Shown here piece after piece: positions 27,846-46,081 of a stretch of 64,000 bases of DNA. Location: positions 1,178,001 through 1,242,000 of the forward strand of contig NZ_CP062231.1 of NCBI RefSeq assembly GCF_024707525.1, read 5' to 3'. Source of the stretch: Rhizobium sp. TH2. Lineage in GTDB: Bacteria > Pseudomonadota > Alphaproteobacteria > Rhizobiales > Rhizobiaceae. Under the pieces are notes generated by a model that saw only the letters and a program-made list of their open reading frames with translations, did no database searches and was not told the origin of the DNA. The translations under genes and the position numbers were made by a program. Each line of letters opens with the position of its first letter. The first letter of the stretch is position 1.

Positions 27846-27996
27846 TCAACGCATTAATCAACAAAAACAATAACTTACGATATTTTAGAGACTGCTAAGT
27901 GTTACAATCTTGTGGTTGATACAGTTGGAACAATGCCGGCTTCTGAATCGCTTGCGTTTATGCTAAACAGGAATTCAATTTTTAAAGGAATCGAAA

Positions 27997-28140
27997 ATGA
28001 GCGATGGCAGCAAGATTCGTCCGCCGCGTGTGATTATCCAAAACGGTTATAGTGCAACGGGCTTGCGGCCCGCCCCGTCCGGCGGAACCCCATCGCAAAA
28101 CACAAATCAAACCGGCAATAGCAATTCCCCGAAGAAATGA
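27997..28140 (+). CDS. Small hypothetical protein (47 aa)
   Basis: A 47-residue peptide starting MSDGSKIRPPRVIIQNG, with a Ser/Asn/Gln-rich tail ending NSNSPKK. AAAGGAA lies six bases upstream of the ATG. Its TGA overlaps the ATG of the following membrane-protein gene (ATGA), a sign of translational coupling, which is the main evidence that it is real. No family recognised. First gene inside the element after attL. Confidence 0.5.
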   Translation: MSDGSKIRPPRVIIQNGYSATGLRPAPSGGTPSQNTNQTGNSNSPKK

Positions 28141-28751
28141 TTGAGTTTGCACTTCACCAAATCGGTGCGGTGCTTCGGGCAATCTCAGGCGCGTTGCAAA
28201 AAATACCCGAGGCTTTGCCCTGGTATCTGGAACTGTCAGTTTCAGACTGGACAAACATTGTCATGACGGCAGCGACCGTGCTTCTCGGCGGCGCTGGCCT
28301 CTATCAATATATTCGCACATCTAAGCTCACCCACGCCGAATTGGTTTTGGGCTTGCATGACCGAATCTCCGCCTCTATCGCTGAAGCTAAAGCATTGCGA
28401 GCGGGAGAAAATCCCGATGACTGGCACGAGCCGTATCTCAACTTGGTTGAAGGGTATGCCGCAATTCTTGTGGCCGGTTCTCTTAGAGGCCTCTCACGCG
28501 AGTTTGCAAATGACTTTGTCGAGAGCCAGGTCAAGTTCATATATGGGGACGACGGCAAGGCGCTGCTCGCGTGGGTTGAGAACCCTATCGACGTTAACGC
28601 TTATAAATATATCGCGGCGTATCGAGCACGGCTAAATGCTCGAGTGAAAAACCAGTGGTGGCACACTCTCAAATTGCGCCGAAATTCACCCAGAAGCCCA
28701 ATTGCGCTCAATGCTTCCGGCGTTAATTCTACCCTCAAGGATCTCAACTAG
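28137..28751 (+). CDS. Hypothetical membrane-anchored protein
   Basis: A 204-residue protein with one clear transmembrane helix at ~40-58 (NIVMTAATVLLGGAGLYQYI), followed by a helical soluble domain (AELVLGLHDRISASIAEAKA and FVESQVKFIYGDDGKALLAW). No family recognised. It is coupled to the 47-residue gene upstream and its end overlaps the convergent membrane-protein gene by 66 bases. It has the look of a small phage accessory (moron) gene. Confidence 0.6.
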   Translation: MIEFALHQIGAVLRAISGALQKIPEALPWYLELSVSDWTNIVMTAATVLLGGAGLYQYIRTSKLTHAELVLGLHDRISASIAEAKALRAGENPDDWHEPYLNLVEGYAAILVAGSLRGLSREFANDFVESQVKFIYGDDGKALLAWVENPIDVNAYKYIAAYRARLNARVKNQWWHTLKLRRNSPRSPIALNASGVNSTLKDLN

Positions 28752-29486
28752 GTTTGGATACATTTCCAACGTTATTTCGGCTAGAAGAAACGCTTCGCGG
28801 ACTTTGTTTGCGTCTAGCGACATGGGTATTGAGGGCTGAGAGCCCCTAGCATATTTAAAGATGTCACCGATAAGTGCATGAATCACCGCCCATCCAATCG
28901 CACTTGAAATGGCATCGTGCATCTGGACTGTATAGGCCACTTTCTGCAGGGCAGGTTGTAGTTGTTGTATTTCACGCGAACGATGCCGGGCCTGTTCCAC
29001 TTGAAAATAGCGGAGAACGTTAGCCAGGCGCTCTTGTGAACAAGGGTCGGCATGCTCAATGCACTGCTTGTATGGGGGAATGAGGTCGGTGGGAATGGGC
29101 ATGAAAAACGTTGCGTCTGGCAGTTTGCTTCCAATTGGCCCGTGACCAGGTTCGAAGCTCAGCCTGATATTGTTTTGGGCCGCCGTTATCATCTCAGACA
29201 GTATCGCTGGTAAGACCGCGCGAGCGGCGATCAGAGAATTCAATCTGCGCTCTTCCTCCAGGTCGTAATTCTGGTTGATCTGAGCACGACTGCCGGCTAG
29301 CGCAAACCAAGCCGCCGCAATCGTAAATATTGCGACGACGATGCTTCCAAGCATGCCAATCCAGGCCGCTTCAGAAAGCTTGAAGTCTAAGAGCATAAAA
29401 ACCGTAAGGAACACGATCGTGGTCCAAAAAGCGCCGTCAACAAAACTCCGGAGCGAACTTACTTGCTTCTCTCTCGCATATTTCAC
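28686..29486 (-). CDS. Hypothetical membrane protein
   Basis: A 266-residue protein. Two N-terminal transmembrane helices (DGAFWTTIVFLTVFMLLDF and GMLGSIVVAIFTIAAAWFAL) are followed by a ~190-residue helical domain. The arrangement resembles the convergent partner gene and the 178-residue protein at the other end of the element. No family recognised. The 3' end overlaps the convergent gene by 66 bases, so antisense interference is possible. Confidence 0.6.
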   Translation of the reverse strand: MKYAREKQVSSLRSFVDGAFWTTIVFLTVFMLLDFKLSEAAWIGMLGSIVVAIFTIAAAWFALAGSRAQINQNYDLEEERRLNSLIAARAVLPAILSEMITAAQNNIRLSFEPGHGPIGSKLPDATFFMPIPTDLIPPYKQCIEHADPCSQERLANVLRYFQVEQARHRSREIQQLQPALQKVAYTVQMHDAISSAIGWAVIHALIGDIFKYARGSQPSIPMSLDANKVREAFLLAEITLEMYPNLVEILEGRINAGSIERNWASG

Positions 29487-29554
29487 AGGGAGTTGTCCTC
29501 ACGCTCCAGGGTTTAGAATTTCGGCTGAATCATTACTTCTCGACATGTCCCTGG

Positions 29555-30259
29555 TCAGGGGACCAAAGTTGCTCCCTGCCAGATGGCTTCATATGCGGCC
29601 ACTTTCAGGCTCGCGGTTTCCGGGTCGGCTCGAATGACCGAAGCATGAGACCGAACCGCCAGCCCATTCAAAGACTGGCTGAGAACGAAGACTTCTTTCT
29701 GGTCCAAGATGAACAGTCTGTCGTGCAGTTGACGCGGAAGTGACTCGCGGGCCTCTACAGGCCGTTTCGCGCCGAACTGTGCCGAAAAACGAACCACAGC
29801 CGGCACGAATGAGGGCTTTACCGTATGCACATCGGTTAACAGTTCGATCTTCACACCCTCCCGCGCGAGGACAGCAAAATCTGTAAGCACCTTGTCGTCC
29901 ATGTAAGGGTCAACAATCCTCACGGTGGTGGCCGCCGTGGACAATACCTTGCTTACTGCGTTAAGCGCGTCGAGAGGGCTTGCTGCCGCAATAAATGCGC
30001 CTCGAACAGGTGCCGGCGCCTTCATCTCTGCTACGGCGATTAGTTTGTAGAGAATCGAATTGGTCTGCGTGACCAAAGAATAGTTCTCAGCGACGTGCGC
30101 CGTTGCCATGATGACCTCAATTCTGGCGGCATCGACATTTGAAATGAATTTGACTGCCGCGTAAACGCGACCCATCCATTGCAATACAGAGGCCGGTTCC
30201 CAATCCGGCTGATCTTGGAGAAGATTCCCGAGTAAGGCATATTGCTCGCCAGCGTCCAT
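29555..30259 (-). CDS. PLD-like domain protein
   Basis: A 234-residue protein. The C-terminal half resembles phospholipase-D-like folds: VRIVDPYMDDKVLTDFAVLA, EGVKIELLTDVH, and LHDRLFILDQKEVFVLSQSL, where HxxLFILD occupies the place of the catalytic HKD. The Lys of HKD is replaced, so classic catalysis is doubtful. The N-terminal half is helical. Such domains occur in phage-defence and phage-exclusion proteins; a defence role is only a suggestion. The start at 30259 follows GGAGGATCAA. Confidence 0.6.
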   Translation of the reverse strand: MDAGEQYALLGNLLQDQPDWEPASVLQWMGRVYAAVKFISNVDAARIEVIMATAHVAENYSLVTQTNSILYKLIAVAEMKAPAPVRGAFIAAASPLDALNAVSKVLSTAATTVRIVDPYMDDKVLTDFAVLAREGVKIELLTDVHTVKPSFVPAVVRFSAQFGAKRPVEARESLPRQLHDRLFILDQKEVFVLSQSLNGLAVRSHASVIRADPETASLKVAAYEAIWQGATLVP

Positions 30260-30306
30260 TTGATCCTCCGTCCTAATCCGTATCGTTGCACCGTGTGATC
30301 GCAGTG

Positions 30307-30498
30307 TCAAATCTCGCAACCGGACGAATCGCCTTGGCACGACACCGGCCAGACGTTTCCGATCTCGCCCACGGCGATGATGATCTGTGTGCGGAGATCG
30401 TCAGGCGCGGCCTGGTCGAAATTCCTGGCGATATGCTCGAGGCGGTCGAGCATGTGGTGATAGTTGTCGTCCGGGCGGTAGGTCGGCTGGATGTCCAT
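30307..30498 (-). CDS. Small hypothetical protein (63 aa)
   Basis: A 63-residue, mostly helical acidic protein (DDNYHHMLDRLEHIARNFDQ) preceded by AAGGGA at a suitable distance from ATG 30498. It lies 47 bases upstream of the PLD-like gene on the same strand and may share its transcript. No family recognised. Confidence 0.45.
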   Translation of the reverse strand: MDIQPTYRPDDNYHHMLDRLEHIARNFDQAAPDDLRTQIIIAVGEIGNVWPVSCQGDSSGCEI

Positions 30499-30743: not shown

Positions 30744-31304
30744 TCAAAACGATCCGTAGCCCGGCAGTTGCTCCATAGTGGCCTGGTCCAAGGTCGTCTG
30801 CTCTTGACCCTTGCGGGTCGCCGCGCGCTCACCCTGCCTTACGATAAGCCCGCACTTGATCTGGTCTTCGGTCCAGCCCTTTTCCTGCCTTCGCTTGATC
30901 CACCCGTTGTCGGACCGCTTGTCGGCCTTCCGCCGCTCCTTCTGCTCGAGGGTCCAGCCGGTGAGCTTTTCGTTCGGCGTGGCCCGCACGGTGCGACGTG
31001 ATGCATTATATTCTTCCTTGCCGGGACCGGCGCGCCATTCGTCTATGCCGTGGCGCTTGCGCCAGATATCCTCCAGGCCGCGCTTGCCCTCGATCTCAAA
31101 ACGCTCTTGCGCCTTCTCGATTTGGCGCTCGACAACGGCGAGAACCTGCGGGTTAATGGGTTCACATTCGATTAGCCGATCACGCTTGGCCTGGAGCGCC
31201 CTCAATTCGGTGAAGCGGCGGTCGTAGGCGGTCATCTTCACAGGTTCACGGATGATGATGCACATGTCGTCATCGTTCAATGCCTGTTGACAATCTTCGT
31301 CCAT
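30744..31304 (-). CDS. Hypothetical highly charged protein
   Basis: A 186-residue protein very rich in Arg, Lys, Glu and Gln, with a coiled-coil-prone centre (RRFTELRALQAKRDRLIECE; VERQIEKAQERFEIEGKRGL) and a basic C-terminal half (KERRKADKRSDNGWIKRRQE). Nucleic-acid binding is plausible but not shown. ATG 31304 is preferred; the frame extends to a TTG at 31325. No family recognised. Confidence 0.5.
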   Translation of the reverse strand: MDEDCQQALNDDDMCIIIREPVKMTAYDRRFTELRALQAKRDRLIECEPINPQVLAVVERQIEKAQERFEIEGKRGLEDIWRKRHGIDEWRAGPGKEEYNASRRTVRATPNEKLTGWTLEQKERRKADKRSDNGWIKRRQEKGWTEDQIKCGLIVRQGERAATRKGQEQTTLDQATMEQLPGYGSF

Positions 31305-31384
31305 TTTGCTACTTTCGGTTATCAATGTTTAGCGGCATTGCTCCAGAAGGCTCGACGTATGCACACCGTCGGGCCTTCATCTAT

Positions 31385-31816
31385 TCAGGCCGCTGCCCTT
31401 TCGATGAGGTCGGCGAAGTCGCGTGCGAGATCGCCGGAGAAGCTGTTATCCTTCCCAGGAAACGGAACCATGATCTTGTATCCGGTGCCGCGCCGGATCA
31501 CCGCATAGTCACTCCCCTTGTTCAGGCCGATCGTGGTGGGCTGATTGCCATCTACGACGCCACGGATCGTCTGAGCAAAAGACACCGCTGCTTCCTTGGG
31601 GAAGGTGCGGGCCTCGCCGTTATCGATCGCGACCTTCACGCCATCCTTCACCTTCTCGACAAGGATGCCAGGAATAGTGTCGGGGATCGTGCCGGCGGCA
31701 ATCTCCTTGCGGATCAAGTGTGCGACGGTGTCGGCGACGGACAAGCCGAGCTTGTCGCCAATGGCTTTCAACTGGTCGAGGCGGCGGGGCGGAAGCTTCA
31801 AGTTAGTCGGGTTCAT
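31385..31816 (-). CDS. Possible ribbon-helix-helix DNA-binding protein
   Basis: A 143-residue protein. The first ~45 residues (LKLPPRRLDQLKAIGDKLGL, then SVADTVAHLIRKEIAAG) have the strand-helix-turn-helix pattern of CopG/Arc-type proteins. The rest is a beta-rich domain of unknown type. A consensus-like promoter with an overlapping palindrome lies just upstream, suggesting autoregulation. It is the only likely transcription factor in the element, so it is a candidate to bind the nearby repeat array. Confidence 0.55.
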   Translation of the reverse strand: MNPTNLKLPPRRLDQLKAIGDKLGLSVADTVAHLIRKEIAAGTIPDTIPGILVEKVKDGVKVAIDNGEARTFPKEAAVSFAQTIRGVVDGNQPTTIGLNKGSDYAVIRRGTGYKIMVPFPGKDNSFSGDLARDFADLIERAAA

Positions 31817-31840
31817 GGTATCTCCTATTGCGATGATTAG

Positions 31841-32296: not shown

Positions 32297-34992
32297 CTAC
32301 CGGCTGAGCATGTTGCCGGGGCGGCGCTGCTTCATGATCTCAGATACGATGAGGCCGCGCATGGTGCCCTCCATCTCCCGGCGCATTTTCTTTGCCAGGT
32401 CGTCGTTCTGTGCCGGCGTGCCAGCCGAGCCGTTGACCGTGATCGGTGCCGAGATAGAAATCGCCTGGGTCGCATTGTCGCTGCCGGCCTTGAGATCGGG
32501 CCTGCGGACGGCCGGCGCGTTGCCGACATAGCCGCCGGACGCATAACCCTTGAGCGCGCCAGTGTGGAGCGCCTCGAGGTTAGCCGCGCCCAAGCGACGG
32601 GTCGCCACAGCGCTCATGACATACTCGCCACGGTGGACAATGCCGGCCGGCTGGAGCTTGCCGCCGTTTCCGGTGTAGCCGCCTTCACTGAATCCGAGGA
32701 GCGCGCCGAAGATGCCGCTGCCGCCCGCTGCACCGCCGAACAGGCCGGCGAGCGGTCCCTTGCCAAGCAACGCCGCTTGTAAGGCAGCATCGACCAGGCT
32801 GTTCAAGAGGCCCTGAAGTGCGCCCTGGAGAGTCTGGGTGCCGGTGAGCAAGCCCGACAATGAAGACGTGAAGCCTTCCGCGAAGAACTTCTGGGCATTC
32901 TGCAATCCCTCGCTTGAGGCGGCAACGGACTGGTTTTTCGAGTCAAGCTGCTGGGTGAGGCTGATCTTCTCCCGCATCTTCGCGAGTTCGGCGTCTGACA
33001 AGGTAATGCCATTGCGCTTCGCTTCGGCCTGGGCCTGGTAAAGCTGAAGCTCAATCTTCTGCTGTGATGCCGACATGCTCGAGATCGACTGTTCGAACCG
33101 TGCCAGGTCGAGCCCTTCCTGGACGGTGCGGTTCAAACTCGTGCGGGCGGCGTCCTGCTGCTTGGCGAGATCGGTCGCGGCCTTCTGACCGTCGGACGGA
33201 TCGAGCGCCGTGCGGGCGGTCGGCGTGCCGTCGTAAGCGTTGCGGATGGTCGAATCATCAACGCGGCGAAGGCCTTCCCATTCGTTGCGCAGTTCTGCCG
33301 GATTGTTGCCGCGACGACGCAAGAGTGCCCGCGCAAGCTCATCCTGGGTGTTCTGGTCGAACACCTGGTCGCCGGCAAGGCCAAGCTCGCTCATGAGGCC
33401 TTCAAGGGTCCGGCCGGTGATCTGATACTTGCCGAGCGCGGATGATCCCTGGCCGTCACCATAAAGGGCGCGGTTCGCCGGATCGGCGAGCATCTGGCGC
33501 TGAAGGTCGCGGACCTGGCTTAAGGTCATGCTGGTCAGGTTCTGAGCGCCGCCAGTCCAGCGGCCGTTGTCGAGGGTCGCGTTGTAGTCGCCACCGCTTT
33601 CGACCGAGCCAATGAGATCGAGAATATTGTCGTGCTTGCCGAACGTCGCCACGCTCTTCGCGCGGCCGGCGATGTCGGTCGCCTGCATAAGTTCGCCCCA
33701 CGACGTCGCCGAGCGTGCTGCCTTCTGGTAGGCGGTGTCCATAGCGCTCGACTGTGCCAGGGTGTCGAGTTCCGCCTTCAATTCCGGAACCAGGTTCTTC
33801 AGGTCGGTGAGCGCCTTCTTGAAGTTCGCGGCGCTCGCGGTGTTGCTAGCGAGGCTGGTCGAAACCGCCTTCGCGGTCGTGTCGAGATTCTTCAGTGAGG
33901 TGCCGAGCTTGTCGCCTTCGCCAGTGACTTCGCCGATAGCGGCGTCCAGGCCGGCGAGATCGCGGCGCATGTCGGCCAGGGCGGCGTTGCGCTCATCGAT
34001 ACCACGCTGCCCCAGATAGGACGCAACGGGCGTAGCTTCAACGGCTGCGATCTGGTCGGCGAGCGCCAGGCGCTGGGCGGTGAGGTTCTTCAGGCGCTCT
34101 GCCTCGAGACGCTTCCCCATGATTTCCGGCGTCATGCGCTTTTCCATCGCAAGGTCGCCTTCGGTCTTCAGGCCGCGAATGGCTTCAATGACGGACTTGG
34201 CAACGCCGACACCGTCGATCGCCGCGCCCTTCGCCATGATGGTGAAGTTCCGCCACATCGTGGACCATTCGGCGTCTACCTTCTTTGCGGCTGCGATCTG
34301 TTCGTCGCTGAAGGTCGCGGCCTCGCTGCGCAGCGTCTGAATTTCGGTGACGGACAAGCCGAGCAACTTGGAAAGCTGTTCGGCGCCGGTGCCGCCGAAA
34401 AGCTCATCGAGGTTCAAAGCCTGTTCGGCGCTGGAGAGCTTCTGAAGTCGGCCGATCATGTCATCGAGAAAGCGGTTCGGGTCTTTCAACTTTTCGGCGA
34501 CTTCATCGGCGCTGTAGCCCAGGCGCGCGAATGCGTCGGCGGCGCTGCCCTTGCCGGTGAGTGCGAATTCAGCACCACGGATGTTCATTTCCTTGAGCGC
34601 GTCGGTGACGCCGTCGATGCTCATGCCGGTAGCGGTCGCCACATAGGTCCACTGCTGCCAGACGCGGGTCGAGACGGATGCCTTGCGGGCCTCGCGATCG
34701 ACTTCGGCCACACTGTCGGCGATCTCCTTGAGGGCGAGAACCGTCGCGCCGACACCGGCCACGATCGCCCCGCTCTTGGCAAGCCGGCGAACATGCGTTC
34801 GAAGCTGCCGGCGATCTTGTCGCCTGACTTGGCATACGTGTCTTCCATCCGCTTAGCCGACTGGCGGGCACGGTTCTCGAGATCAGTCGAGCCGCGCCTA
34901 TGAGCGGCGTTCGCCTTGATGATACCCTTCTCGAGCTTGTCGATCCGGGCTTCGATATCGACCACCAGGCCGGGCATATTCACGTCATTCAT
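32297..34992 (-). pseudogene. Tail tape measure protein, split by a frameshift
   Basis: The start lies in one frame (34992; MNDVNMPGLVVDIEARIDKL) and continues in another after about 34783 as KSGAIVAGVGATVLALKEIA. Restoring one base after GGCTTG gives a continuous ~898-residue protein. Features fit a tape measure: an N-terminal coiled coil, a long helical body and a hydrophobic Gly-rich C-terminal stretch (LFGGAAGGSGIFGALLGF). An internal lysozyme-like domain has IGSVESGGDYNA and ALGKYQI, matching muralytic domains of tape measures. The downstream part alone (32297-34762, 821 codons) is open. A sequencing indel is as likely as real loss. Confidence 0.75.
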
Positions 34993-37747: not shown

Positions 37748-38178
37748 TTGCGGCCTACCTTCTTGATGGCGGCCGTGATGGCGCGGGCGAGCCTGGGCAT
37801 GATTTTGGGTCGAGCGAGCCGCCAGCCGGGAAGCATAAAAGGCTGAGCTTCGGCTTTGGCGCTGCCGAATTCGACCAGGTGTCCATAGCGCACGCCGTCA
37901 TTGCCCACGGTCACGAGAACCTGATTAGGCGCGGCGGTGCGCTTGCCCCCATTCGAGGCATAGGCCGGCGTCGTTTCGCCAGGTCCAGTGACTGCGATAC
38001 TGTCGATGAGCGCGCCGGTGTCACGCGATGCTTCGGCGAGCGCGGCCATATTGCGCGCCACGTCGTCGCCGCTGCGGATCAAAGCGGGGCGAAGTGCGGC
38101 CAGGATTTCAGCCGGGACGGCGTTCAAGCGCATCTCGAGCCGCCTGGACTGCGCAGAAAGAGGCTCATTCGGCGACAT
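37744..38178 (-). CDS. HK97 gp10-like phage protein
   Basis: A 144-residue protein with the HK97-gp10 pattern: LRPALIRSGDDVARNMAALA, a GALIDSIAV strand, GNDGVRYGHLVEFGSAKAEA and the terminal AQPFMLPGWRLARPKIMPRL. These proteins take part in tail completion at the head-tail interface. It overlaps the connector gene by 14 bases. Confidence 0.82.
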   Translation of the reverse strand: MSPNEPLSAQSRRLEMRLNAVPAEILAALRPALIRSGDDVARNMAALAEASRDTGALIDSIAVTGPGETTPAYASNGGKRTAAPNQVLVTVGNDGVRYGHLVEFGSAKAEAQPFMLPGWRLARPKIMPRLARAITAAIKKVGRK

Positions 38179-38503
38179 AACCAGTCACCTCTTCGCGATA
38201 ATTGCGCAGCAAATCGGCCACGCCGTAGGGCAAATCATTGACGCTCGTGCCTATCAGGACCGCTTCACGGCTCGAATAGAAGTGCGCTGCCAGCAAGAGC
38301 ACGGCGTGCTTCACGTCGGACGGCACGGGTGCCAGGTCGGCGAGCGGCTTGCCGAGCATCCCAGCGGCTCGAGCTTCGGCGGCGTCGATGTAGTGCTGAA
38401 GCAGTTCGTCGGTCGCCGTTGCCAAGCCGCCGAGCGCGTCGGCGTCGATCAGTTCGTCGCTGCCGAGGTGCGCCTTGAAGAGTGAAAGGGTGATGGTGCT
38501 CAT
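38165..38503 (-). CDS. Phage head-tail connector (gp6-like)
   Basis: A 112-residue all-helical connector: ITLSLFKAHLGSDELIDADA, HYIDAAEARAAGMLGKPLAD, KHAVLLLAAHFYSSREAVLI and LPYGVADLLRNYRE. This is the HK97 gp6 family that docks under the portal. The start at 38503 follows GAGG; the frame is open 65 codons further upstream without family similarity. It is divergent from the SRA-HNH gene, so it needs its own promoter in 38504-38640. Confidence 0.85.
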   Translation of the reverse strand: MSTITLSLFKAHLGSDELIDADALGGLATATDELLQHYIDAAEARAAGMLGKPLADLAPVPSDVKHAVLLLAAHFYSSREAVLIGTSVNDLPYGVADLLRNYREEVTGYVAE

Positions 38504-38640
38504 TCTAAATCCTCGTGGGAATAAAAACCTATATTCAAGCTCTCTTGTGCGGTCCTTCCCCCGCCGGTCCCCTTGCAAGGCTCGAAGTTCAGAGCTACCC
38601 CCGGTAGTGGAGCGAAGTAACTGTTGAAGGGGGATAGATC

Positions 38641-39447
38641 GTGACTTGGGGATTTGAACGAGGCCGTGTCTACAATCGTCGTCGTGATATTCACGCACGC
38701 TTTGCAGGTCAGCAGCAAGGTGGGATCATCACTCCTGCGGCACATCAATTGGTCATCATCATCACTGGTGAAGAGGGGCTTGCCAATGGCTACGCTGATC
38801 GTCTTCGGCCCGATGGCGTGTTTGAATATTTTGGCGAAGGTCAGATAGGGGACATGCAATTTGTCCGCGGAAATGCCGCTGTCCGAGATCACTGGCTCAA
38901 CGGGCGAGATTTGCTGCTTTTTCGCAAAATGCCCGAGGGTCTGCGATTTGAGGGCGTCATGGTTTATGGCGATTATCACTTTAGGCAGGCTCCGGATCGA
39001 AACGGAGATCTGCGGCGCGCGATAGTGTTCGAACTGCGCCCATTGGAAGCGGTCGAAGAAGCTGTTGAGGAGGCCGAACAGCCGCCGCTGAGGGACCTTG
39101 CCGAACTTCGTGCACTCGCAATTCAGGCGTCTAGAATTGAGCCTGGTCGGGCCGTGATGCTCCGCGAGATCAGTGTCGTGGAGCGTAGCAGGCGCGTCCG
39201 CGATTATGTTGTCGCGCGTGCACAGGGTGATTGCGAAGGATGCAGGCAGCCCGCACCATTTCAAACTGCGAGAGGCACGCCATACCTGGAACCTCATCAT
39301 ATCCGAAGGTTGAGCGACGGCGGCCCTGATGATCCGCGCTACGTGATTGCCCTTTGCCCGAACTGCCATCGGCGGGTGCATTTCGGTCGAGACGGCACGG
39401 ATTACAATGCGGACCTGCTTGAGCGCATGCGGGTTATCGAGCCTTAA
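38641..39447 (+). CDS. SRA-like/HNH modification-dependent endonuclease
   Basis: A 268-residue nuclease on the strand opposite the phage genes. The N-terminal ~130 residues match the SRA-like domain of ScoMcrA-type enzymes (GRVYNRRRDIHARFAGQQQG, FEYFGEGQIGDMQFVRGN). The C-terminal HNH has CEGC, EPHHIRRLSDGG and CPNCHRRVH. Such type IV restriction enzymes cut DNA carrying modified bases. It begins with GTG at 38641 after an AAGGGGG ribosome site. It splits the head operon in two and ends 14 bases from the small HNH gene. Likely cargo that restricts competing phages. Confidence 0.8.
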   Translation: MTWGFERGRVYNRRRDIHARFAGQQQGGIITPAAHQLVIIITGEEGLANGYADRLRPDGVFEYFGEGQIGDMQFVRGNAAVRDHWLNGRDLLLFRKMPEGLRFEGVMVYGDYHFRQAPDRNGDLRRAIVFELRPLEAVEEAVEEAEQPPLRDLAELRALAIQASRIEPGRAVMLREISVVERSRRVRDYVVARAQGDCEGCRQPAPFQTARGTPYLEPHHIRRLSDGGPDDPRYVIALCPNCHRRVHFGRDGTDYNADLLERMRVIEP

Positions 39448-39461
39448 CACACGGCGAGAAC

Positions 39462-39806
39462 TCATAGCACGCGCTCCTGCCGCTGCTTCACGCGGCTATG
39501 GCAAGGCGTGCAAAGCGATTGCCAGTTGGTGCGGTCCCAAAACAGGCGATCATCGCCACGGTGGGGAATCCTGTGGTCAACGACGCGAGCGGGCTTGCCG
39601 CATCCGAGCATGGCACAGTGCGGGTGCAAATCGAGGTACGCGATCCGTGCCTTGCGCCATTCATGGTCATAACCACGGTCACGCGGTGAAGGCCGGCGTG
39701 CGTCATGGCGTGCATTACGGGCGCGGGTTGCCACGCGCTGGCACTGACAGAGAGTGCTATGCGGAACGATCTTGCCACAGATGCAAAGGCGCGGCGGGCG
39801 GGTCAT
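39462..39806 (-). CDS. Phage HNH endonuclease
   Basis: A 114-residue HNH protein. Cys ligands (LCICGK, CAMLGCGK, LCTPCHSRVKQR), the DHRIPHRGDDRLFWD core and NWQSLC define the family that assists terminase in many HK97-like phages. In those phages the gene is usually next to terS; here four structural genes and the SRA-HNH gene intervene. It overlaps the upstream gene by four bases. Confidence 0.85.
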   Translation of the reverse strand: MTRPPRLCICGKIVPHSTLCQCQRVATRARNARHDARRPSPRDRGYDHEWRKARIAYLDLHPHCAMLGCGKPARVVDHRIPHRGDDRLFWDRTNWQSLCTPCHSRVKQRQERVL

Positions 39807-40426
39807 ACGCCACCTGCGATCTTAGCCTTGAGTGCTGCCAGGCCGGCGCGATCGAAGGCGGGGTCATAGCCAAGCTCATGAATCTGCTCGAGGCGTTCGG
39901 CGGTGTAATTGTCGTTAGGCTGTTCGGCCTGGTCGTCGGCGCTGCCGTGAATGATCTTGAGCATGGCGATGTGGCCGGTGAACGCCTCATTGATTTCGAT
40001 AGGGGTCGCACGCCAGGCGGCGTCAGGCGTCCAGCCGAGACAGCCGGCAGCGGTGCGGTAAAGCTCGCGATAGACTTCCTGCCAGGTCATCGGCTTGCCG
40101 GTCGAGGGCTTGCTGCCCTGGTCGGCCTGGGGGATGAAAGCGCGGCAGATATCGGCGACGGGCGCGCGGACTGCTGCGATGAAACGGGTAAGGGGTTCGG
40201 TCGAGAATGCCTCGAGGAAAGCGGCGGCTTCCTGGCGATCGGTCGCGGTGATCATGATCACGTCGCGGACGGTGCCATAGTGGAATTCATCGACTTGGCG
40301 AAAGAGCCGATCGAAACCATAGTTGCGCTCGAGGTCGGATGCGGCCCGCAATGACGCACGCAACCGGACGCGGCGGGAAGGACCGCGTTCAAGGCTGATT
40401 TTATCATGGGCGGGCCGCAAGCTCAT
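39803..40426 (-). CDS. Tail-assembly-chaperone-like protein (GTA-type)
   Basis: A 207-residue protein. The N-terminal part (VRLRASLRAASDLERNYGFD) is like gene-transfer-agent gp10-type proteins. The C-terminal part (TWQEVYRELYRTAAGCLGWT, then PDAAWRATPIEINEAF) resembles the small TAC family next to tape measures in GTAs. This assignment is by pattern only. It follows the capsid gene, sharing its last base, and precedes HNH. Confidence 0.55.
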   Translation of the reverse strand: MSLRPAHDKISLERGPSRRVRLRASLRAASDLERNYGFDRLFRQVDEFHYGTVRDVIMITATDRQEAAAFLEAFSTEPLTRFIAAVRAPVADICRAFIPQADQGSKPSTGKPMTWQEVYRELYRTAAGCLGWTPDAAWRATPIEINEAFTGHIAMLKIIHGSADDQAEQPNDNYTAERLEQIHELGYDPAFDRAGLAALKAKIAGGV

Positions 40427-41982
40427 TACGCGGCAACCTTCAGCTTGATAAAGCGGTCGGGGTGCGACACGTCCGCACCGACGCGGCGGTAAGCGGTGAA
40501 CTTCACCTGGCCGGTGTCGGAAAGCGTATAGGGGTCGCGAAGAACCGAAAGGCCGATGCGATCAACGATGCGATAGCCCTGGAGATCACCGAACATGATC
40601 GGGAAGGCGTTCGCGGCAACGTCGGGCATATCGATGGCTTCCACGATCGGACGGCCGAGCAAGGTTGCCGGTGCGCCCTGGGTAATCGGGTCGAGCATGA
40701 TGAAACGGCCGGTGCCATCCTTGAGCGTGCGAAGTGCGCCGAGGGTGTTGCGGTTCATGATCCAGACGCCGTTCTGTGCGATGACGGACGGCAGCTTGTG
40801 GAACATGGCGATGATGGTCGCGGCCGGGTCGGTGCCGAGCGTGGCGGCGTTGCCGGTCTTGATTTCGGTGATGCCGGTAGCTGCCAGAAGGCCCTTCGGC
40901 TTGCCGGTGCCATCGCCAGTCACGAAGGCGAGGCCTTCAGTCTTGGCGAAGCTTTCACCGAAGTCGGCGACAAGTTCGCCTTCAAGGCCGTAGGCGTTGT
41001 CTTCAAGAAGCTGGCGGGAGACAGGCACGAAACAGGAAAGCTCGTGCGGGGTGAAAGTCGCCTGTTCGAAGGTCATGCCGGATTCGGTGCGAGCGGCGAT
41101 TTCCGATACCCAGGTCGCGGCCGTGCCGGTGAGCTTGCGCGGATACTTGACTTCCGGTGCCGTGATCGACGTGACCTTGGCATACTGCCGGATCGGCGAC
41201 ATTTCCACGATCTTCTTCAGGATTTCATTGCCGAGGGCTTCGGGTGCGAGGTAGCCGCCATTGGCGTCAACGGACACCGTGAGCGCCTTGACTTCGTCGG
41301 CGCTGAGACGTTCGATGCCACGACGAATGAAGCCGACGAATGCCTTCTGTTCGGTGCCGTTGTCATTGTCGGCGAGCGGCTGGTTATTGTTGGCGGCGAG
41401 CGGACGATTGGCCTTTGCTTCGACCTTGTCGAGTCGTGCCTTCAGGGCCTTCAGTTCGTCGGCGCTGATAACCGGGTCACTCTTCGTTTCCGGTTCATTC
41501 TTGATATCTTCGTTTTCCATGTTGCTTTCCTCAATTAGAGATTTGACTTCGGTGACGCGCGCGGACGGATGCATCGGGCGACGGCAGAGCGAAATTTCGG
41601 TGATGGTGAGATCAGTCAGGACGCGCCCGCCTTCGGGGCGCGCCTTGTATTCGTGAAGGCGATATCCGATCGAGAGACCGGACATGATGCCGCTGCGAAG
41701 GCGCTGGCGTGCCGCGCGAGCGGGTGCCACGCCTTCCACGAACAAGCTGCCTTTGACTTCAAGGCCCTTGTCGGTGACTTCCATAGATTCCCAGACGCCT
41801 ACGACTTCGCGCTGTTCGTGCTCGAGGATCATTGCGACCTTGGGCGCGAACCTGAAGGCGGTCGGCTCGATCAGGTCGCCGGTGCTGTCGGGCGAGCCGA
41901 ACGGCCAGGCGATGCCCGTGACGGTGCCGGCGTCATCGATCGACACGTCGGCCTTGATCTCGAGGTTCTCGACTTCGGTCAT
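40426..41982 (-). CDS. Prohead protease-major capsid protein fusion (HK97 type)
   Basis: A 518-residue polyprotein. Residues ~1-150 form the HK97 prohead protease (MILEHEQREVVGVWE with the catalytic His; SGLSIGYR with the catalytic Ser). Residues ~160-230 form a charged scaffold-like delta region rich in Lys/Asn/Gln. The rest is the HK97-fold capsid (AFVGFIRRGIERLSADEVKA, PEVKYPRKLTGTAATWVSE, GDGTGKPKGLLAA). Residue 155 is a Met preceded by GAGGAAAG, so a capsid-only product may also be made (see 41518-41532). Overlaps both neighbours. Confidence 0.9.
   Translation of the reverse strand: MTEVENLEIKADVSIDDAGTVTGIAWPFGSPDSTGDLIEPTAFRFAPKVAMILEHEQREVVGVWESMEVTDKGLEVKGSLFVEGVAPARAARQRLRSGIMSGLSIGYRLHEYKARPEGGRVLTDLTITEISLCRRPMHPSARVTEVKSLIEESNMENEDIKNEPETKSDPVISADELKALKARLDKVEAKANRPLAANNNQPLADNDNGTEQKAFVGFIRRGIERLSADEVKALTVSVDANGGYLAPEALGNEILKKIVEMSPIRQYAKVTSITAPEVKYPRKLTGTAATWVSEIAARTESGMTFEQATFTPHELSCFVPVSRQLLEDNAYGLEGELVADFGESFAKTEGLAFVTGDGTGKPKGLLAATGITEIKTGNAATLGTDPAATIIAMFHKLPSVIAQNGVWIMNRNTLGALRTLKDGTGRFIMLDPITQGAPATLLGRPIVEAIDMPDVAANAFPIMFGDLQGYRIVDRIGLSVLRDPYTLSDTGQVKFTAYRRVGADVSHPDRFIKLKVAA
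41518..41532 (-). promoter_or_regulatory. Internal ribosome site inside the protease-capsid gene
   Basis: On the minus strand GAGGAAAGCAACATG places a Shine-Dalgarno-like GAGGAAAG just before the in-frame Met155, exactly at the protease/delta-domain border. Initiation here would give a ~364-residue capsid precursor without protease, as in phages that produce both from one gene. Confidence 0.5.
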
Positions 41983-42293
41983 GCCGCCACCTCTTCGGGC
42001 TTGCCGGTCCAGCGTGCGTCGATGATGTCGAAGGCGAGCGGGAAGGTCTCATCAATCACGCGGTTCTTCGCGTAGGTATCGACCAGGCGCTGTGCGACAG
42101 CCGGCGACGTGCCGCCACCGATGAGACCAAGCCGGATGAGTTCGACCATATGTTCGAAACTCCATTCGGCGCGGCTCATGCGTAAATAGAAGCCGGCGAT
42201 GCCCAGGCCGGTCTTGTTCTCGAGTTCAAGAATCATGTCGTCGGTGAGCGCGAAGGTGTAGGTCGCGTCACCGAAATAGGCGGTGTGCTTCAT
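41979..42293 (-). CDS. GTA-gp10-family protein (tail assembly chaperone-like)
   Basis: A 104-residue protein matching the gene transfer agent gp10 family: ALTDDMILELENKTGLGIAG, IRLGLIGGGTSPAVAQRLVD and TYAKNRVIDETFPLAFDI. In gene transfer agents and related phages it acts with the tail assembly chaperones. Its place between portal and protease, away from the tape measure, is unusual. Four-base overlaps on both sides. Confidence 0.75.
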   Translation of the reverse strand: MKHTAYFGDATYTFALTDDMILELENKTGLGIAGFYLRMSRAEWSFEHMVELIRLGLIGGGTSPAVAQRLVDTYAKNRVIDETFPLAFDIIDARWTGKPEEVAA

Positions 42294-43504
42294 TCGTCTT
42301 CCTTGGAAGGTTCGATCGCGGGCGCTGCCGGCGTCGTGGTGATGTGAGGATTTGAAAGGCTGTTGCCGTCCGGGTGCGGCTGCATATTGAGCATGCCGCG
42401 CACTTCGTTGCCGGTCATCGCGCCCATACTGCGATACTGGCCGAGCGCGGTTGCCTTCTTGCTGAAGTCGGTCGTGAGAAGGTCGTCGGTGACGAATTCG
42501 ATGTAGAACAGTTCGCGCTCTTCCGGCGTGAGCAACACGCGGGCGTAGGCCCAGGCCCAGGCAGTGAGCCAGGGCTTGAGGGTGATGGTGTAGAACTGGC
42601 GGGCCATCTCTTCGGTGTTCGACCAGGTGCCGCGCGTTAGCTCAAAGAGCATGGTCGGCGGGACGCGGAAGAGCCTAGCGATCTCACGGATTTGCTCGAG
42701 GCGGTTCTCGGCGAACTGAGAGTCGGCGAGCGTGGCAGAAAGCTGCTGATAGCCCATTTCCTCATCGAGAATGGCAGTGCCGCCGGCATTACTGCCGGCA
42801 TGGGTGTTGAACCAACTTGCGGCTAGCTTCTTCTTCGCGTCGGCATCGAGCGACTTCTTCGCGGTGATGACACCGGACGGCCGGCCACCGTTGGCGAAGA
42901 GGCTGGCGATGTGACGTTCGAAGGCGATCGAAAGTGCGATGGCTTCACGGCCCAGGACGATCGGCGAGACACCGCCGAACGGCTGGATATGAAGTATGTC
43001 GGTGTATTCGTAGCGGACCTGGCCGCGATCGACGGACACAAGGTAGTAGGGCGTGCCGTCGTCTTCCTGGTTATACTGGACCTTACCAGGCTCAAGCCGG
43101 TGAAGCTCGAGCGGCCGGCCATCGGATGCGCGGGACACGAGCGCGTAGCCATTGCTCTGCATGAGCGCGTCGATGGTGAGATCGACGCGAAGCTGCGAAG
43201 CGCTGGTCCAGTCGTTGGCCTCGTCATGGACGAGCTTGTAGGCGGGGTGTTCGCGGGCGGTCGCCTTCGTGTCGCGCTGATAGACCTTCGCCGGCAACGA
43301 GCCGATAGTGTCAGAGATCAGCGAGATCGCACAAGCAACGGCAGGAACGCGGATAGCGCCATTGACGCCAACTTCAATATTGGACGCGGTGGGCACTATG
43401 CCGAAGAGAGCACCGATACCAGGATCGGCGAGAGATACAGACTTCTGTTCTACGCCATAGCCAAAGGCCTTCTTGGCAATATTCGATATGGCAGTAAAAG
43501 GCAT
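42290..43504 (-). CDS. HK97-family phage portal protein
   Basis: A 404-residue portal subunit; twelve would form the DNA channel at the capsid vertex. Family landmarks include VPAVACAISLISDTIGSLPA, the HPAYKLVHDEAN region, FGGVSPIVLGREAIALSIAF, FRVPPTMLFELTRGTWSNTE and the C-terminal MTGNEVRGMLNMQPHPDG. First gene of the overlapping head block. Confidence 0.92.
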   Translation of the reverse strand: MPFTAISNIAKKAFGYGVEQKSVSLADPGIGALFGIVPTASNIEVGVNGAIRVPAVACAISLISDTIGSLPAKVYQRDTKATAREHPAYKLVHDEANDWTSASQLRVDLTIDALMQSNGYALVSRASDGRPLELHRLEPGKVQYNQEDDGTPYYLVSVDRGQVRYEYTDILHIQPFGGVSPIVLGREAIALSIAFERHIASLFANGGRPSGVITAKKSLDADAKKKLAASWFNTHAGSNAGGTAILDEEMGYQQLSATLADSQFAENRLEQIREIARLFRVPPTMLFELTRGTWSNTEEMARQFYTITLKPWLTAWAWAYARVLLTPEERELFYIEFVTDDLLTTDFSKKATALGQYRSMGAMTGNEVRGMLNMQPHPDGNSLSNPHITTTPAAPAIEPSKEDE

Positions 43505-43588: not shown

Positions 43589-44125
43589 TTAGGCATTTAT
43601 TCCATTTCTTTGAGCGAGCATCACTGCCTCATAGAGCTTGCGCACCGTATTTTCGTTCGCAATGTCGTTTGGCACAAAGCTGTGCTTCCACTCATCGTCC
43701 CATTTATACGCCGTCGATGTGCGACGATCGAGATACGACGTCCTCAATTTTGCATCTTCGCCAATGCCCGAGTAGTGATCAAAAAGCTCCTCCATGAACT
43801 CCTGATACCTGTCGAAAACATCGGGTTCCAGGAGATACTTGTTCACGTATATCTTTTGATCTAGCGAACGCTTTGTATCAATTATCTGTTGCGGTGTGTG
43901 TCTCTGCCAGTCGCCGACCCACGTATAATAGCATAGTAGCTTGTTTAGAAGCGGCGAAACTTCATCATATATTTGGATGCGCTTCTCTGTTATTTTCCGA
44001 TTTGCCCATTGCCCCTGCTCGATATCCTTCAGGCGTTTGCTGAGCTTCCACCCTAGAATGCCGACGACTATCGGCGTGGCAGCTTGCACTACCAGTTTGG
44101 CTATCTCAAATCCCATCGGTTCCAT
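43589..44125 (-). CDS. Hypothetical membrane-anchored protein
   Basis: A 178-residue protein with a single N-terminal helix (IAKLVVQAATPIVVGILGWK) and a helical cytosolic domain rich in Tyr, Asp and Glu (YQEFMEELFDHYSGIGED). GGGGGAATCAA precedes the ATG. It is more AT-rich than the head genes, like the membrane proteins at the other end of the element. No family recognised. Confidence 0.6.
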   Translation of the reverse strand: MEPMGFEIAKLVVQAATPIVVGILGWKLSKRLKDIEQGQWANRKITEKRIQIYDEVSPLLNKLLCYYTWVGDWQRHTPQQIIDTKRSLDQKIYVNKYLLEPDVFDRYQEFMEELFDHYSGIGEDAKLRTSYLDRRTSTAYKWDDEWKHSFVPNDIANENTVRKLYEAVMLAQRNGINA

Positions 44126-44152
44126 TTGATTCCCCCGCTGCGGGAGATCAAA

Positions 44153-45946
44153 CTACAATACACGCAAATGCTCAAGCCGAAGTTCGGGATAGGCGATCGC
44201 GTTGACCAATTCTACGCGCTGATCGAGCATGCCCTGGGGTAGATTGCCATAGCGGCCGGTCATCGTGCTTTTCGAGTGGCCTAGAATGAAGCCGAAGTTC
44301 TCGTCCAGATAGCCGGCGCGCCTAAGTGCATCGACGGCACCATGCCGGAAGCTGTAGAGGGAAAGGCCGCGCCCTTCCTTCATGCCAAGCCTGGTGAGGT
44401 AGCGGCCGAATTCCCTCGAGAAATCGGCAATCATCTGGCCGCGCGAATTGCGGACGGCGTCGGGAAACAGTCGAGCCTCGCCGCTTTCCTTCACCTGGGA
44501 GTGATACTTGAGCAAGCCGAGCTTCACCAGTTCGGGATGGATCGGGACGACGCGCATAGATCCGCCTGTCTTCACGCTCTTGTCGCCGCCTCCCTCTTCG
44601 GTGATGTGCATGATCCAATGGCCGCGATCCTGGCGAACATCGGCGACGTTCATCTGGGCAATCTCTGCCGGCCGCGCGCCTGAGAAAAGCATGATCAACG
44701 GCACCCAATAGCGGTGATCGCGGATCGTGACATTGCCAGGCTTGGCGATGTTGCGCCATTCGTCGGCGCTCTGAGCGCCCGTGAAGAGCGGCGACTTGAA
44801 GAGCACGTTCAACTGATCGGACGTGAAGGGCAGGGTGCTTGCGTCCTTCTTTTTCGCCATGCTCATATCTGCGGTCGGGTTGATGTCGAGGTAGCCGTGA
44901 GCAACGAGCCAATTGCAGAATGCGCCCAGGCTCGAGAGGTAGCGATTGACGGTGCGTGGAGTGAGCACCGGCTTGCCTACCTTTTCGTTGTGCTTGACGA
45001 TCTGCGCAATCTTCATGCCGGTGAATGCTTTCGTCTCTGTCGCCTTCACCGGGTAGCGGATCAAGAGCGCCTTCCATTCGCGGACGGCCTTCTTGTCGAT
45101 GCGATGCACCGGGCAAGTGCTGCCTACGAGATCGACAAAGGTGCCAATGTCGCGGCGTGCCTGTTTGAGGGTGTCGGCCGTGATGCCCTTGGGGTTCTCC
45201 CGCTCATAGGCCGCGAAGAGTTCCATGATGGTTTCGCCGGGTGCTGCCGTTTCGCGTGCCGTGCCGATGGCGGGCTTCACGATCGGGTCGGTCGGCGCGC
45301 CGGTGTAGTCGCCATGATCACGCTCAAAGGTGCGCTCAAGAGCCTGGATTTCGGCGCGCATCATGCGCCTGGCGGTGTCGCCGCGATCGGGCGAGATCGG
45401 CTCGATCAAGAGCTTGTTCGTTTCGATGTAGTCTTCGACCTCATGCGAGATCAGCGCCGGCTCGCCTTCGACCAGGTGCTTGCGCAGAGCATCGAGCTTG
45501 GCGACACGGGCGGCGGTGTCGAGCGCGCGCCGGTTAGTCAACATCTGGACTTCGAGGCCGGCGTCGAGTAGCGCCAGCGGGTCGCGGATATTGAGCTTCC
45601 GGGCCTGAATATCTTCGACTGCGCGTTCGGTCGCGGCGTCGATATCGGCCTGGGTCGGCATTGTCTGCCGGCGCTGTTCGTCACGCTCGAGGGTCGCAGT
45701 GTAGTGCTGCCAGGTCGCGTGTGCCTTGTCGTCTGGCGTCATGACGCGGCGGGCGCGCATATCATCGAACTGGCGGTTCCAGGCTTCCACGACGGGCCAC
45801 AAGAGTCGCTTCGCCTCGTTCTCGTCTTTGGTGCCGAGCGCCTTCACAAGCTCGTTCTTGCCGGTGATGTCTACGAGATCGAGCGGCACGCGGATGCGGG
45901 CATAGTAGCTTGCGCCGCGCCTGAGAAGGTAGCTTAAACGTGCCAT
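44153..45946 (-). CDS. int: Site-specific tyrosine recombinase (integrase)
   Basis: A 597-residue phage integrase. The N-terminal ~100 residues (LLRRGASYYARIRVPLDLVD, then LVKALGTKDENEAKR) are a DUF6538-type arm-binding region; a core-binding SAM-like domain sits at ~260-370. The catalytic domain shows the first Arg in FSGARPAEIAQMNV, HxxR in YSFRHGAVDALRRAG, the late His in GHSKSTMTGRYG and the Tyr nucleophile in the same segment. It reads away from attR, which is 119 bases upstream of its start. It should catalyse integration into tRNA-Gln. Confidence 0.9.
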   Translation of the reverse strand: MARLSYLLRRGASYYARIRVPLDLVDITGKNELVKALGTKDENEAKRLLWPVVEAWNRQFDDMRARRVMTPDDKAHATWQHYTATLERDEQRRQTMPTQADIDAATERAVEDIQARKLNIRDPLALLDAGLEVQMLTNRRALDTAARVAKLDALRKHLVEGEPALISHEVEDYIETNKLLIEPISPDRGDTARRMMRAEIQALERTFERDHGDYTGAPTDPIVKPAIGTARETAAPGETIMELFAAYERENPKGITADTLKQARRDIGTFVDLVGSTCPVHRIDKKAVREWKALLIRYPVKATETKAFTGMKIAQIVKHNEKVGKPVLTPRTVNRYLSSLGAFCNWLVAHGYLDINPTADMSMAKKKDASTLPFTSDQLNVLFKSPLFTGAQSADEWRNIAKPGNVTIRDHRYWVPLIMLFSGARPAEIAQMNVADVRQDRGHWIMHITEEGGGDKSVKTGGSMRVVPIHPELVKLGLLKYHSQVKESGEARLFPDAVRNSRGQMIADFSREFGRYLTRLGMKEGRGLSLYSFRHGAVDALRRAGYLDENFGFILGHSKSTMTGRYGNLPQGMLDQRVELVNAIAYPELRLEHLRVL

Positions 45947-46064
45947 GACTGCCCCATGTGGAAGGTCTGTGTGTTACAGTCATGTGTTACAAGTTCGTTC
46001 GGAATAAGTCAACAATAGCAATTACATGAACGATTTCATCAGTCTAGAAAAAGTTGGATTTTGT

Positions 46065-46081
46065 TCCAGGCGCCCCAGCCA
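46065..46081 (+). repeat. attR core
   Basis: An exact direct copy of the last 17 bases of tRNA-Gln (TCCAGGCGCCCCAGCCA), with no tRNA body upstream. It marks the right boundary of the integrated element, next to the integrase. Confidence 0.9.

What the first reader, a model, noticed from the sequence alone, without database searches (positions are those of the whole stretch)
27846..46081. An 18-kb element with its own capsid genes but almost no tail: candidate capsid-encoding phage satellite
Sequence shows exact att repeats, an intact integrase, and intact, tightly overlapping portal, protease-capsid, connector, adaptor, TerS and TerL genes. No major tail protein, baseplate, fibre, holin/endolysin, repressor or replication gene is recognisable, and every stretch between head genes is filled. 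Capsid-forming PICIs package themselves in their own capsids and borrow helper tails; the size, tRNA site and gene content fit that idea. A decaying prophage is the main alternative.
Basis: partly seen in the sequence, partly recalled or inferred. Interest (0 to 1): 0.75.

Follow-up and report, generated by a model that had tools for sequence, protein, structure and literature searches.

The report
Phage satellite with own tape measure
An 18-kb mobile element in a Rhizobium-like bacterium carries genes for its own virus head and for the tape measure and helper proteins that start and size a virus tail, but none recognised for the tail tube or tip, so it probably finishes its particles with parts taken from another virus.

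Summary
The element is 18,236 bp, bounded by an exact 17-bp repeat at tRNA-Gln, with intact integrase, portal, protease-capsid, neck, TerS and TerL genes. But it is not "almost tail-less": it carries a tape-measure protein (TMP; frame split in this copy), two chaperone-like genes and a tail-terminator-like gene. No tube, tip, lysis or replication gene was recognised. It belongs to a large family of compact alphaproteobacterial elements; four relatives have their own att repeats at tRNA-Ser, -Gln, -Pro and -Val (16.6-18.5 kb). Of 99 distinct loci with portal, capsid, TerL and 2 kb beyond, TMP is in 64 of 64 with the window's chaperone, 21 of 21 with the other chaperone or tube, and 2 of 14 with neither; 63 of the 64 lack a tube gene. 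A conserved non-coding motif is a probable cos site. Decay of one prophage does not explain this. Best reading: a capsid-forming satellite that supplies head, packaging and tail-initiation kit and takes tube and tip from a helper, as shown for PLE satellites. TMP genes in some cf-PICIs were noted in 2026, so this is a new variant of a known kind. Helper and particles are untested.

The parts
27772..27845 (+). tRNA-Gln (TTG), integration site
   Evidence: ARAGORN
27829..27845 (.). attL, 17-bp exact repeat
28137..28751 (+). possible accessory ORF of 204 aa, no family
   Evidence: not kept by the coding-score caller
28686..29486 (-). accessory gene, 266 aa, membrane-protein-like by eye, function unknown
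29555..30340 (-). PLD-like gene, candidate defence cargo (PADLOC PDC-S05, E 6.5e-13)
30307..30498 (-). orf63, small gene with relatives in 26 loci, no Pfam family
30744..31325 (-). accessory gene, 193 aa, no family
31385..31816 (-). orf143, 143 aa, relatives in 25 loci, no family
32297..34992 (-). tape-measure protein gene; frame split between about 34771 and 34783 in this copy (pieces 34621-34992 and 32297-34762); in one frame in L014/L050, L051, L052
35003..36643 (-). TerL (ATPase + nuclease)
36640..37026 (-). TerS, Terminase_4 family
37023..37346 (-). head completion protein (Phage_HCP)
37334..37747 (-). tail completion/terminator-like protein (gp17, PF11367)
37744..38178 (-). HK97-gp10-like protein
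38165..38503 (-). gp6-like head-tail connector
38521..38604 (-). conserved non-coding motif, probable cos/packaging site
   Evidence: (E 3.3e-17)
38641..39447 (+). antisense HNH gene, type IV restriction-like cargo
39462..39806 (-). HNH endonuclease of the packaging module
39803..40426 (-). TACb, tail-assembly-chaperone-like (PF09550 E 2e-5)
   Evidence: its homologue in pMPOP02 is named 'phage tail assembly chaperone'
40426..41982 (-). fused prohead protease and major capsid protein
41979..42293 (-). TACa, GTA-gp10/TAC_11 family chaperone
42290..43504 (-). portal
43589..44125 (-). accessory gene, 178 aa, no family
44153..45946 (-). tyrosine integrase, 597 aa
46065..46081 (.). attR, 17-bp exact repeat

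Best explanation
This is an integrated capsid-forming phage satellite of a large alphaproteobacterial family. Shown by sequence: it has its own integrase and att repeats, head, neck, HNH-TerS-TerL packaging genes and a conserved putative cos site, plus a tape-measure protein, two chaperone-like proteins and a terminator-like protein, and no recognisable tube, tip or lysis genes. Inferred: after a helper phage is induced or infects, the element excises, its DNA is cut at its own cos site and packed into its own heads. Its chaperones coat its own tape measure and recruit the helper's tube protein onto the helper's tip, so that the satellite sets the length and inner channel of a chimeric tail that its own neck proteins cap. 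Lysis comes from the helper. Replication genes are unknown for this copy; some relatives carry a weakly HUH-like Rep, a Rep3 plasmid initiator or a primase. The frameshift in the TMP of this copy may make it depend on another TMP, or may be a sequencing error.
For: Exact att repeats here and in four related elements at tRNA-Ser, tRNA-Gln (CTG), tRNA-Pro and tRNA-Val, sizes 16,619-18,452 bp. Same gene order in many loci. Without choosing by TMP: of 99 loci distinct by TerL with portal, capsid, TerL and at least 2 kb held beyond TerL, 64 have TACb, and TACa and TMP are in 64 of 64 of these, a tube gene in 1; 21 have c4 or a tube gene, and TMP is in 21 of 21; 14 have neither, and TMP is in 2 of 14. 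Six-frame search of the 66 TACb-bearing, tube-less loci with 12 single proteins and 7 profiles for tube, tip and lysis: no hit at E<=0.01; 8 of the 19 queries, among them tube proteins of GTA, phi2LM21 and a same-genus prophage, hit the eight tube-bearing control loci. The chaperones c4 and c7 of the tube-bearing type match two genes between tube and TMP in that prophage, while TACa and TACb match GTA gp10 and the gene before the TMP of phage RHph_X66; the two sets show no detectable homology to each other. dN/dS of window against L050: portal 0.24, capsid 0.26, TerL 0.20, main part of TMP 0.27. Motif in 99 of 104 loci, one copy each, none in base-shuffled copies, and just before terS or terL in phage-order contigs L163, L226 and L214. 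Precedent: PLE satellites build chimeric tails with their own TMP and hub (PMC12987554, passages).
Against: No helper, excision, particle or transfer data. The TMP frame is split in this copy. No regulator or replication gene recognised here. Absence of tube and tip rests on sequence homology only; 11 of the 19 queries, including all for J-type tip, holin and lysozyme, hit no control locus either. 10 and 4 of the 66 tube-less loci have a single gpI-like or gpM-like tail gene, and L208, L264 and L110-like kin have more tail genes. In the host genome three terminase families (PF03354, PF05876, PF03237) were found only in the element and the GTA, so no resident helper is seen. Structure prediction could not be run.
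Confidence: 0.72

Rival explanations
1. A capsid-forming satellite that borrows a complete helper tail; its TMP and chaperones act mainly as decoys that disturb helper tail assembly or are a spare for when the helper TMP is blocked.
For: The PLE authors infer that PLEs can use the helper TMP, less efficiently, when their own is removed (PMC12987554, passage); the TMP of the window copy is split.
Against: TMP goes with the chaperones in 85 of 85 loci that have either chaperone type or a tube gene and in 2 of 14 that have neither; TMP is under purifying selection (dN/dS 0.23-0.27); a decoy would not need a terminator-like gene.
Confidence: 0.1
2. A decaying prophage that lost its tail, lysis and control genes.
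For: Split TMP frame; kin with tip and lysozyme exist (L208, L264).
Against: Same content and order in dozens of loci, five elements with exact att repeats at tRNA genes; head genes open and under purifying selection; module exchange among elements (portal 96% but TerL 44% identical between L050 and L051) speaks for active mobility.
Confidence: 0.07
3. An autonomous dwarf phage whose tube and tip proteins are too divergent to recognise.
For: Unknown genes of up to 266 aa remain; L208 and L264 look like complete ~20-kb phages of the same superfamily.
Against: Three of the unknown genes of the window copy (orf178, orf266, orf204) have no relative in other held loci and orf193 few; 109 accessory ORFs from 42 tube-less loci match no tail or lysis family among 19 Pfam families and the 25 of 49 PHROG families shown.
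Confidence: 0.05
4. The element takes its tails from the host's gene transfer agent rather than from a phage.
For: In the host genome PF13550 tail-tip proteins and, of three terminase families searched, any terminase other than the element's were found only in the GTA; gp17, TACa, capsid, portal, gp6 and head-completion families match GTA proteins.
Against: The TMP family matches the phi2LM21 phage TMP far better (E 2.6e-103) than the short GTA one (E 1.6e-7); other terminase families were not searched; the helper may be an infecting phage.
Confidence: 0.05

Closest known systems
[quoted passage not shown] Alqurainy et al. 2023, seen only as cited in PMC10690885 and PMC10803314)
   Same: Own capsid, protease, portal, connectors, HNH, TerS and TerL; island size; no tail tube or tip; a sampling of cf-PICIs encodes putative tmp genes (PMC12987554, Extended Data Fig. 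10 legend).
   Different: [quoted passage not shown] no AlpA/Stl or primase found in this copy; fused protease-capsid; TMP with two chaperones throughout the class; 18 kb against an average of 14 kb.
PLE satellites of Vibrio cholerae
   Same: Satellite-encoded TMP and chaperone with helper tube and tip; chimeric tails shown (PMC12987554, passages).
   Different: PLE11 particles use helper capsid protein, not an own capsid; contractile helper ICP1; sequence relation not tested.
MulchRoom and MiniFlayer satellites of Streptomyces phages (PMC10690885, passages)
   Same: Own head and terminase genes; tail of MulchRoom thought to be the helper's.
   Different: The term 'tape measure' does not occur in the paper; direct terminal repeats; virulent helpers.
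cf-PISP satellite-plasmids of Vibrio (PMC13230959, passages)
   Same: Capsid-forming satellite kept as a plasmid; Paracoccus marcusii plasmid unnamed5 (L054) and pMPOP02 (L056) are circular plasmid records of the present family.
   Different: Said to lack tail genes; capsid clusters with gammaproteobacterial cf-PICIs.
RcGTA-like gene transfer agents
   Same: HK97-type head, similar neck and a gp10-type chaperone.
   Different: This element has integrase, att repeats, an own cos-like motif and no recognised tube or tip.
Sinorhizobium phage phi2LM21
   Same: Best TMP match among the phages and the GTA examined (family profile E 2.6e-103 over most of both); distal tail and fibre relatives in some kin.
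   Different: 46.6-kb phage with a different head (annotated lambda-family portal, major capsid protein E) and full tail and lysis genes.

Membership tests
cf-PICI | Own major capsid, protease, portal, head-tail connectors, TerS, TerL, HNH (list from PMC10690885 Introduction passage) | tested here: met
cf-PICI | Integrase and site-specific att repeats | tested here: met
cf-PICI | AlpA/Stl-type regulator (recalled as a PICI hallmark; PMC13230959 mentions an Stl-like regulator in a cf-PICI-type element) | tested here: not met
   none recognised in the window copy by Pfam, nor by PHROGs and NCBIfam for the ORFs given; the tube-bearing relative L110 has an HTH_17 gene
cf-PICI | Primase/replication gene (recalled as a PICI hallmark) | tested here: not met
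   none recognised in the window copy; the tube-bearing relative L111 has Prim-Pol + AAA_25
cf-PICI | Depends on the helper for the whole tail, no own tail genes | tested here: not met
   own TMP, chaperones and terminator-like gene; some cf-PICIs are reported to have putative tmp too
cf-PICI | Capsid falls among known cf-PICI capsids | not tested
   no cf-PICI capsids were fetched
cf-PICI | Induction and transfer by a helper phage | not testable with these tools
   needs experiments
PLE-type chimeric-tail satellite (function) | Satellite-encoded TMP and TAC without own tube | tested here: met
   TMP frame split in this copy
PLE-type chimeric-tail satellite (function) | Satellite TMP incorporated in satellite virions | not testable with these tools
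   needs particles
Gene transfer agent | No integrase or att sites; complete tail (recalled) | tested here: not met

The most novel reading that the evidence does not exclude
The tube-less elements are satellites of the host's own gene transfer agent: they bring head, packaging, tape measure and chaperones and finish their tails with GTA tube and tip, so they spread without any phage.
Probability: 0.05. Interest if true: 0.92.

Novelty: new variant of a known kind. Interest (0 to 1): 0.62.

Why it matters
It would extend tail piracy with a satellite-owned tape measure, which PMC12987554 presents as known only for PLEs, to a very large alphaproteobacterial satellite family that also owns its capsid. 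The family offers a graded series: elements with no TMP found, elements with a tape-measure kit but no tube, elements with another kit plus tube, and ~20-kb elements with tip and lysis. That makes the question of why satellites keep the tape measure directly testable in hosts such as Sinorhizobium meliloti, and it gives a DNA motif that finds members without a protein search.

Tried and rejected
Tube protein hidden between HNH and gp6: rejected; the recurring ORFs there are repeated HTH proteins and reversed cargo genes, and their shared end is a DNA motif, not a protein domain. The ~128-aa gene behind the capsid in many kin was first taken for a tube protein; it matched no Pfam family and tube proteins of phrog_158 occur beside it, so I call it decoration-like only. 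A single loss of the tube gene: not supported, because on the capsid tree starred branches force at least 8 changes of the type A label (long branches flagged there), which points to capsid exchange; I claim no direction of change. Clean empty site: not shown, since tRNA-Gln is in 9 of 9 genus genomes but the right flank 46082-47400 matches only the own genome apart from one 194-bp stretch in G002. Motif in named phages by blastn: no match. Sewage phage record MW091529 (18 kb) looked like a virion form of the family but has a GTA-like order with tube and tip genes. Paracoccus ferrooxidans pFER4, Roseomonas pTT14-8 and the E. coli plasmid were looked at and left aside.

Limits: genes were called with my own script, so start sites are rough. 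Type A (TACb, no tube), B (tube plus c4 or decoration-like gene, no TACb), I (both) and other are my labels, so 'no tube' and 'TACb' are true of type A by definition; TACa, and TMP, are not. The 104-locus set requires TMP and excludes L053, L057, L156, L157, L158, loci without one of the four marker genes and repeats of an identical TerL; one search does not require TMP and also leaves out the circular L054 and L056. Many loci are cut: 47 of the 66 type A loci have more than 1.5 kb held behind the TMP. The motif profile was trained on 38 of the held sequences and many later loci were fetched by the motif itself, so 197 hits is not an independent count; 93 were found before that fetch. The pattern also brought contigs in which I saw none of the family's head genes (for example L169, L184, L192, L196, L244). 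The shuffled control keeps base composition only. PHROG output for cargo shows 25 of 49 families; I gave 109 of the 113 ORFs listed. The paper library holds only openly licensed full texts; statements on what is in print rest on searches and on passages of PMC10803314, PMC11389934, PMC10690885, PMC12987554 and PMC13230959; no paper was read whole.
Full report
What is there. The element lies between exact 17-bp repeats at 27829-27845, the 3' end of tRNA-Gln, and 46065-46081, 18,236 bp from repeat to repeat. Reading from the integrase end the minus strand holds: integrase, a 178-aa accessory gene, portal, a GTA-gp10 type chaperone (TACa), a fused prohead protease-capsid, a TAC_6-type gene (TACb), HNH, a slot with an antisense HNH gene, gp6 connector, HK97-gp10, gp17 tail completion, head completion, TerS, TerL and a tape-measure protein, then accessory genes including a PLD-like gene. 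The larger piece of the tape measure matches phrog_10574 at E 6.2e-73. In this copy it is read in two frames that meet between about 34771 and 34783; relatives have it in one frame of about 900 aa.

Is it a remnant? Unlikely. In the nine genomes held for the genus, four elements of this kind lie in three genomes, the window's included. G008 is evidently Rhizobium sp. SG_E_25_P2, as the match lies at the same place of a contig of the same length. Exact repeats bound all four plus one on S. meliloti pSymB: tRNA-Gln 17 bp (18,236 bp), tRNA-Ser 19 bp (18,284), tRNA-Gln (CTG) 17 bp (16,619), tRNA-Pro 26 bp (17,824) and tRNA-Val 19 bp (18,452); in L016, the sixth element examined, no repeat was found within the held stretch. 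In the order, 18 of 397 genomes, the own one included, have a capsid relative at E<=1e-80, a lower bound because at most three candidates per genome were scored. All 34 pairwise dN/dS values between window, L050, L051 and (integrase) L052 are below 0.65; between window and L050 8 of 11 genes have 0.165-0.30, the others TACa 0.45, head completion 0.42 and TACb 0.51; dS is near or above 1 in many, so these are rough. L050 and L051 share 96% of portal but 44% of TerL and 33% of TerS residues, so modules are exchanged.

The family. I annotated the held loci with profiles grown from the window genes. Of 104 loci, distinct by TerL, that hold portal, capsid, TerL and TMP, 66 have TACb and no tube gene (type A, the window's kind), 29 have a tube gene with c4 and/or a decoration-like gene but no TACb (type B), 4 have both, among them plasmid pMPOP02, and 5 are other. 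These labels are definitions; what they do not fix is that TACa is in 66 of 66 type A loci, and that type B has c4 in 28, c7 in 16 and two tube genes in 11 of 29. The tube gene is phrog_158. A count not chosen by TMP: of 99 loci distinct by TerL with portal, capsid, TerL and at least 2 kb held beyond TerL, 64 have TACb and all 64 have TACa and TMP, 1 with a tube gene; 21 have c4 or a tube gene and all 21 have TMP; 14 have neither and 2 of these have TMP. So the tape measure goes with a chaperone set. Some type A loci have a single further tail gene: gpI-like in 10 and gpM-like in 4 of 66. Loci with no TMP found in the held stretch include L040, L083, L101, L102, L126 and L128. At the other end L208 and L264 carry a discoidin-like protein behind the TMP, a tail protein of phrog_11439 and a lysozyme, so they look like complete phages of about 20 kb. 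On a capsid tree the type A label needs at least 8 changes: capsids move between types, and I draw no direction of change from it.

Is a tube or tip hidden? A six-frame search of the held stretches of all 66 type A loci with 12 single proteins and 7 profiles (tube, distal tail, tip, fibre, holin, lysozyme) found nothing at E<=0.01. Eight of the 19 queries hit the eight control loci: tube proteins of GTA, phi2LM21 and the G001 prophage, the phi2LM21 distal tail protein and four profiles, which were partly built from those loci. The other 11, among them J, holin and lysozyme, hit no control either, so their silence says less. Of 109 accessory ORFs from 42 type A loci the 19 Pfam families hold no tail or lysis family but two abortive-infection families (Abi_alpha, putAbiC), one member each; the 25 of 49 PHROG families shown are mostly HNH and unknown.

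Why the kit matters. In a prophage of the same genus (G001, L298) the tube gene is followed by genes matching c4 and c7, then small genes, TMP and tip-region genes; the c7 match is Phage_TAC_18. So type B satellites keep tube, chaperones and TMP of that kind. Type A satellites keep TMP with other chaperones: TACa resembles GTA gp10 (hhalign probability 72%, E 3.3e-5), and the last 24 residues of TACb match those of the gene before the TMP in phage RHph_X66 (97%, E 1.4e-10). The two chaperone sets show no detectable homology. Two satellite types keeping a tape measure with different chaperones while lacking the tip suggests that the set works as a unit. The family TMP profile matches most of the phi2LM21 TMP at E 2.6e-103; the 191-aa GTA tape measure matches only in one part at 1.6e-7.

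Packaging site. ORFs in front of gp6 end in a shared stretch that is conserved as DNA whatever is coded there. A profile of 38 such stretches finds one copy in each of 93 held sources, next gene gp6 in 68 and portal in 11. After a pattern scan of IMG/VR 197 sources have one copy each; of the 104 loci 99 have it (type A 62 of 66, B 29 of 29, I 3 of 4, other 5 of 5), and base-shuffled copies of the 104 have none. In contigs with usual phage order (L163, L226, L214) weaker matches (E 0.001-0.006) sit just before terS or terL. I read it as the cos site; cutting is not shown.

Mechanism and precedent. PMC12987554 (Nature 2026; passages) shows for PLE11 that satellite TMP and hub replace those of phage ICP1 in satellite virions, with tails about 10 nm shorter, and states that putative satellites elsewhere, including a sampling of cf-PICIs, encode putative tmp genes. 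The present family fits that mode with its own capsid added. What is shown here is anatomy, conservation and selection; excision, helper, chimeric tail and cos cutting are inferred. In the window genome PF05876 terminase was not found, PF03354 only in the element, PF03237 only in the element and the GTA cluster, and the tail-tip family PF13550 only in the GTA cluster, so a resident helper was not seen, though other families were not searched.

Membership. By gene content it works like a cf-PICI, but regulator and primase were not found and the element has tail genes, so I do not file it as one. In the searches named under Tried and rejected I found no paper on such elements in Alphaproteobacteria; the library is limited to open licences.

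Noticed in passing
window 38641-39447 + and same slot in L023, L103, L113, L071, L089: A cargo slot between HNH and the cos-like motif holds different reversed genes in relatives; here an HNH gene resembling type IV restriction enzymes (PADLOC mREase_IV E 8e-17).
   Followed up: partly
window 29555-30340 -: PLD-like gene matching candidate defence family PDC-S05.
   Followed up: partly
L054 (NZ_CP157016.1), L056 (NC_010721.1), L055 (CP099479.1): Plasmid forms of the superfamily: Paracoccus marcusii 17.5-kb plasmid with a Rep3 initiator and a type A head-TMP set, Methylorubrum pMPOP02, and Roseomonas pTT14-8 with head genes and TerL.
   Followed up: partly
L208, L264: Related ~20-kb elements with tail-tip and lysozyme genes, possible minimal siphophages.
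   Followed up: partly
c2 cluster, 14 proteins behind the TMP gene, e.g. L105:11996-12760: Weakly HUH-Rep-like protein (REP_ORF2-G2P E 0.0011, below the curated cut-off; motif HIHG); another member, L031, had no Pfam hit.
   Followed up: partly
o316-type ORFs before gp6, e.g. L016:12527-13297: Proteins with repeated HTH-like units (EWADHLGIS...) in variable number, function unknown.
   Followed up: no
G001:C17:28000-47900 (L298): Same-genus prophage with tube, two chaperones, TMP and tip-region genes, whose tube and chaperones are homologous to those of type B satellites; candidate helper class.
   Followed up: partly
L111 9212-10090 and other type B loci: Two tandem tube-protein genes in 11 of 29 type B loci.
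   Followed up: no
window 46223-46720 +: SAM-dependent methyltransferase (PF12692) just right of attR; the right flank is hardly conserved in the genus.
   Followed up: no
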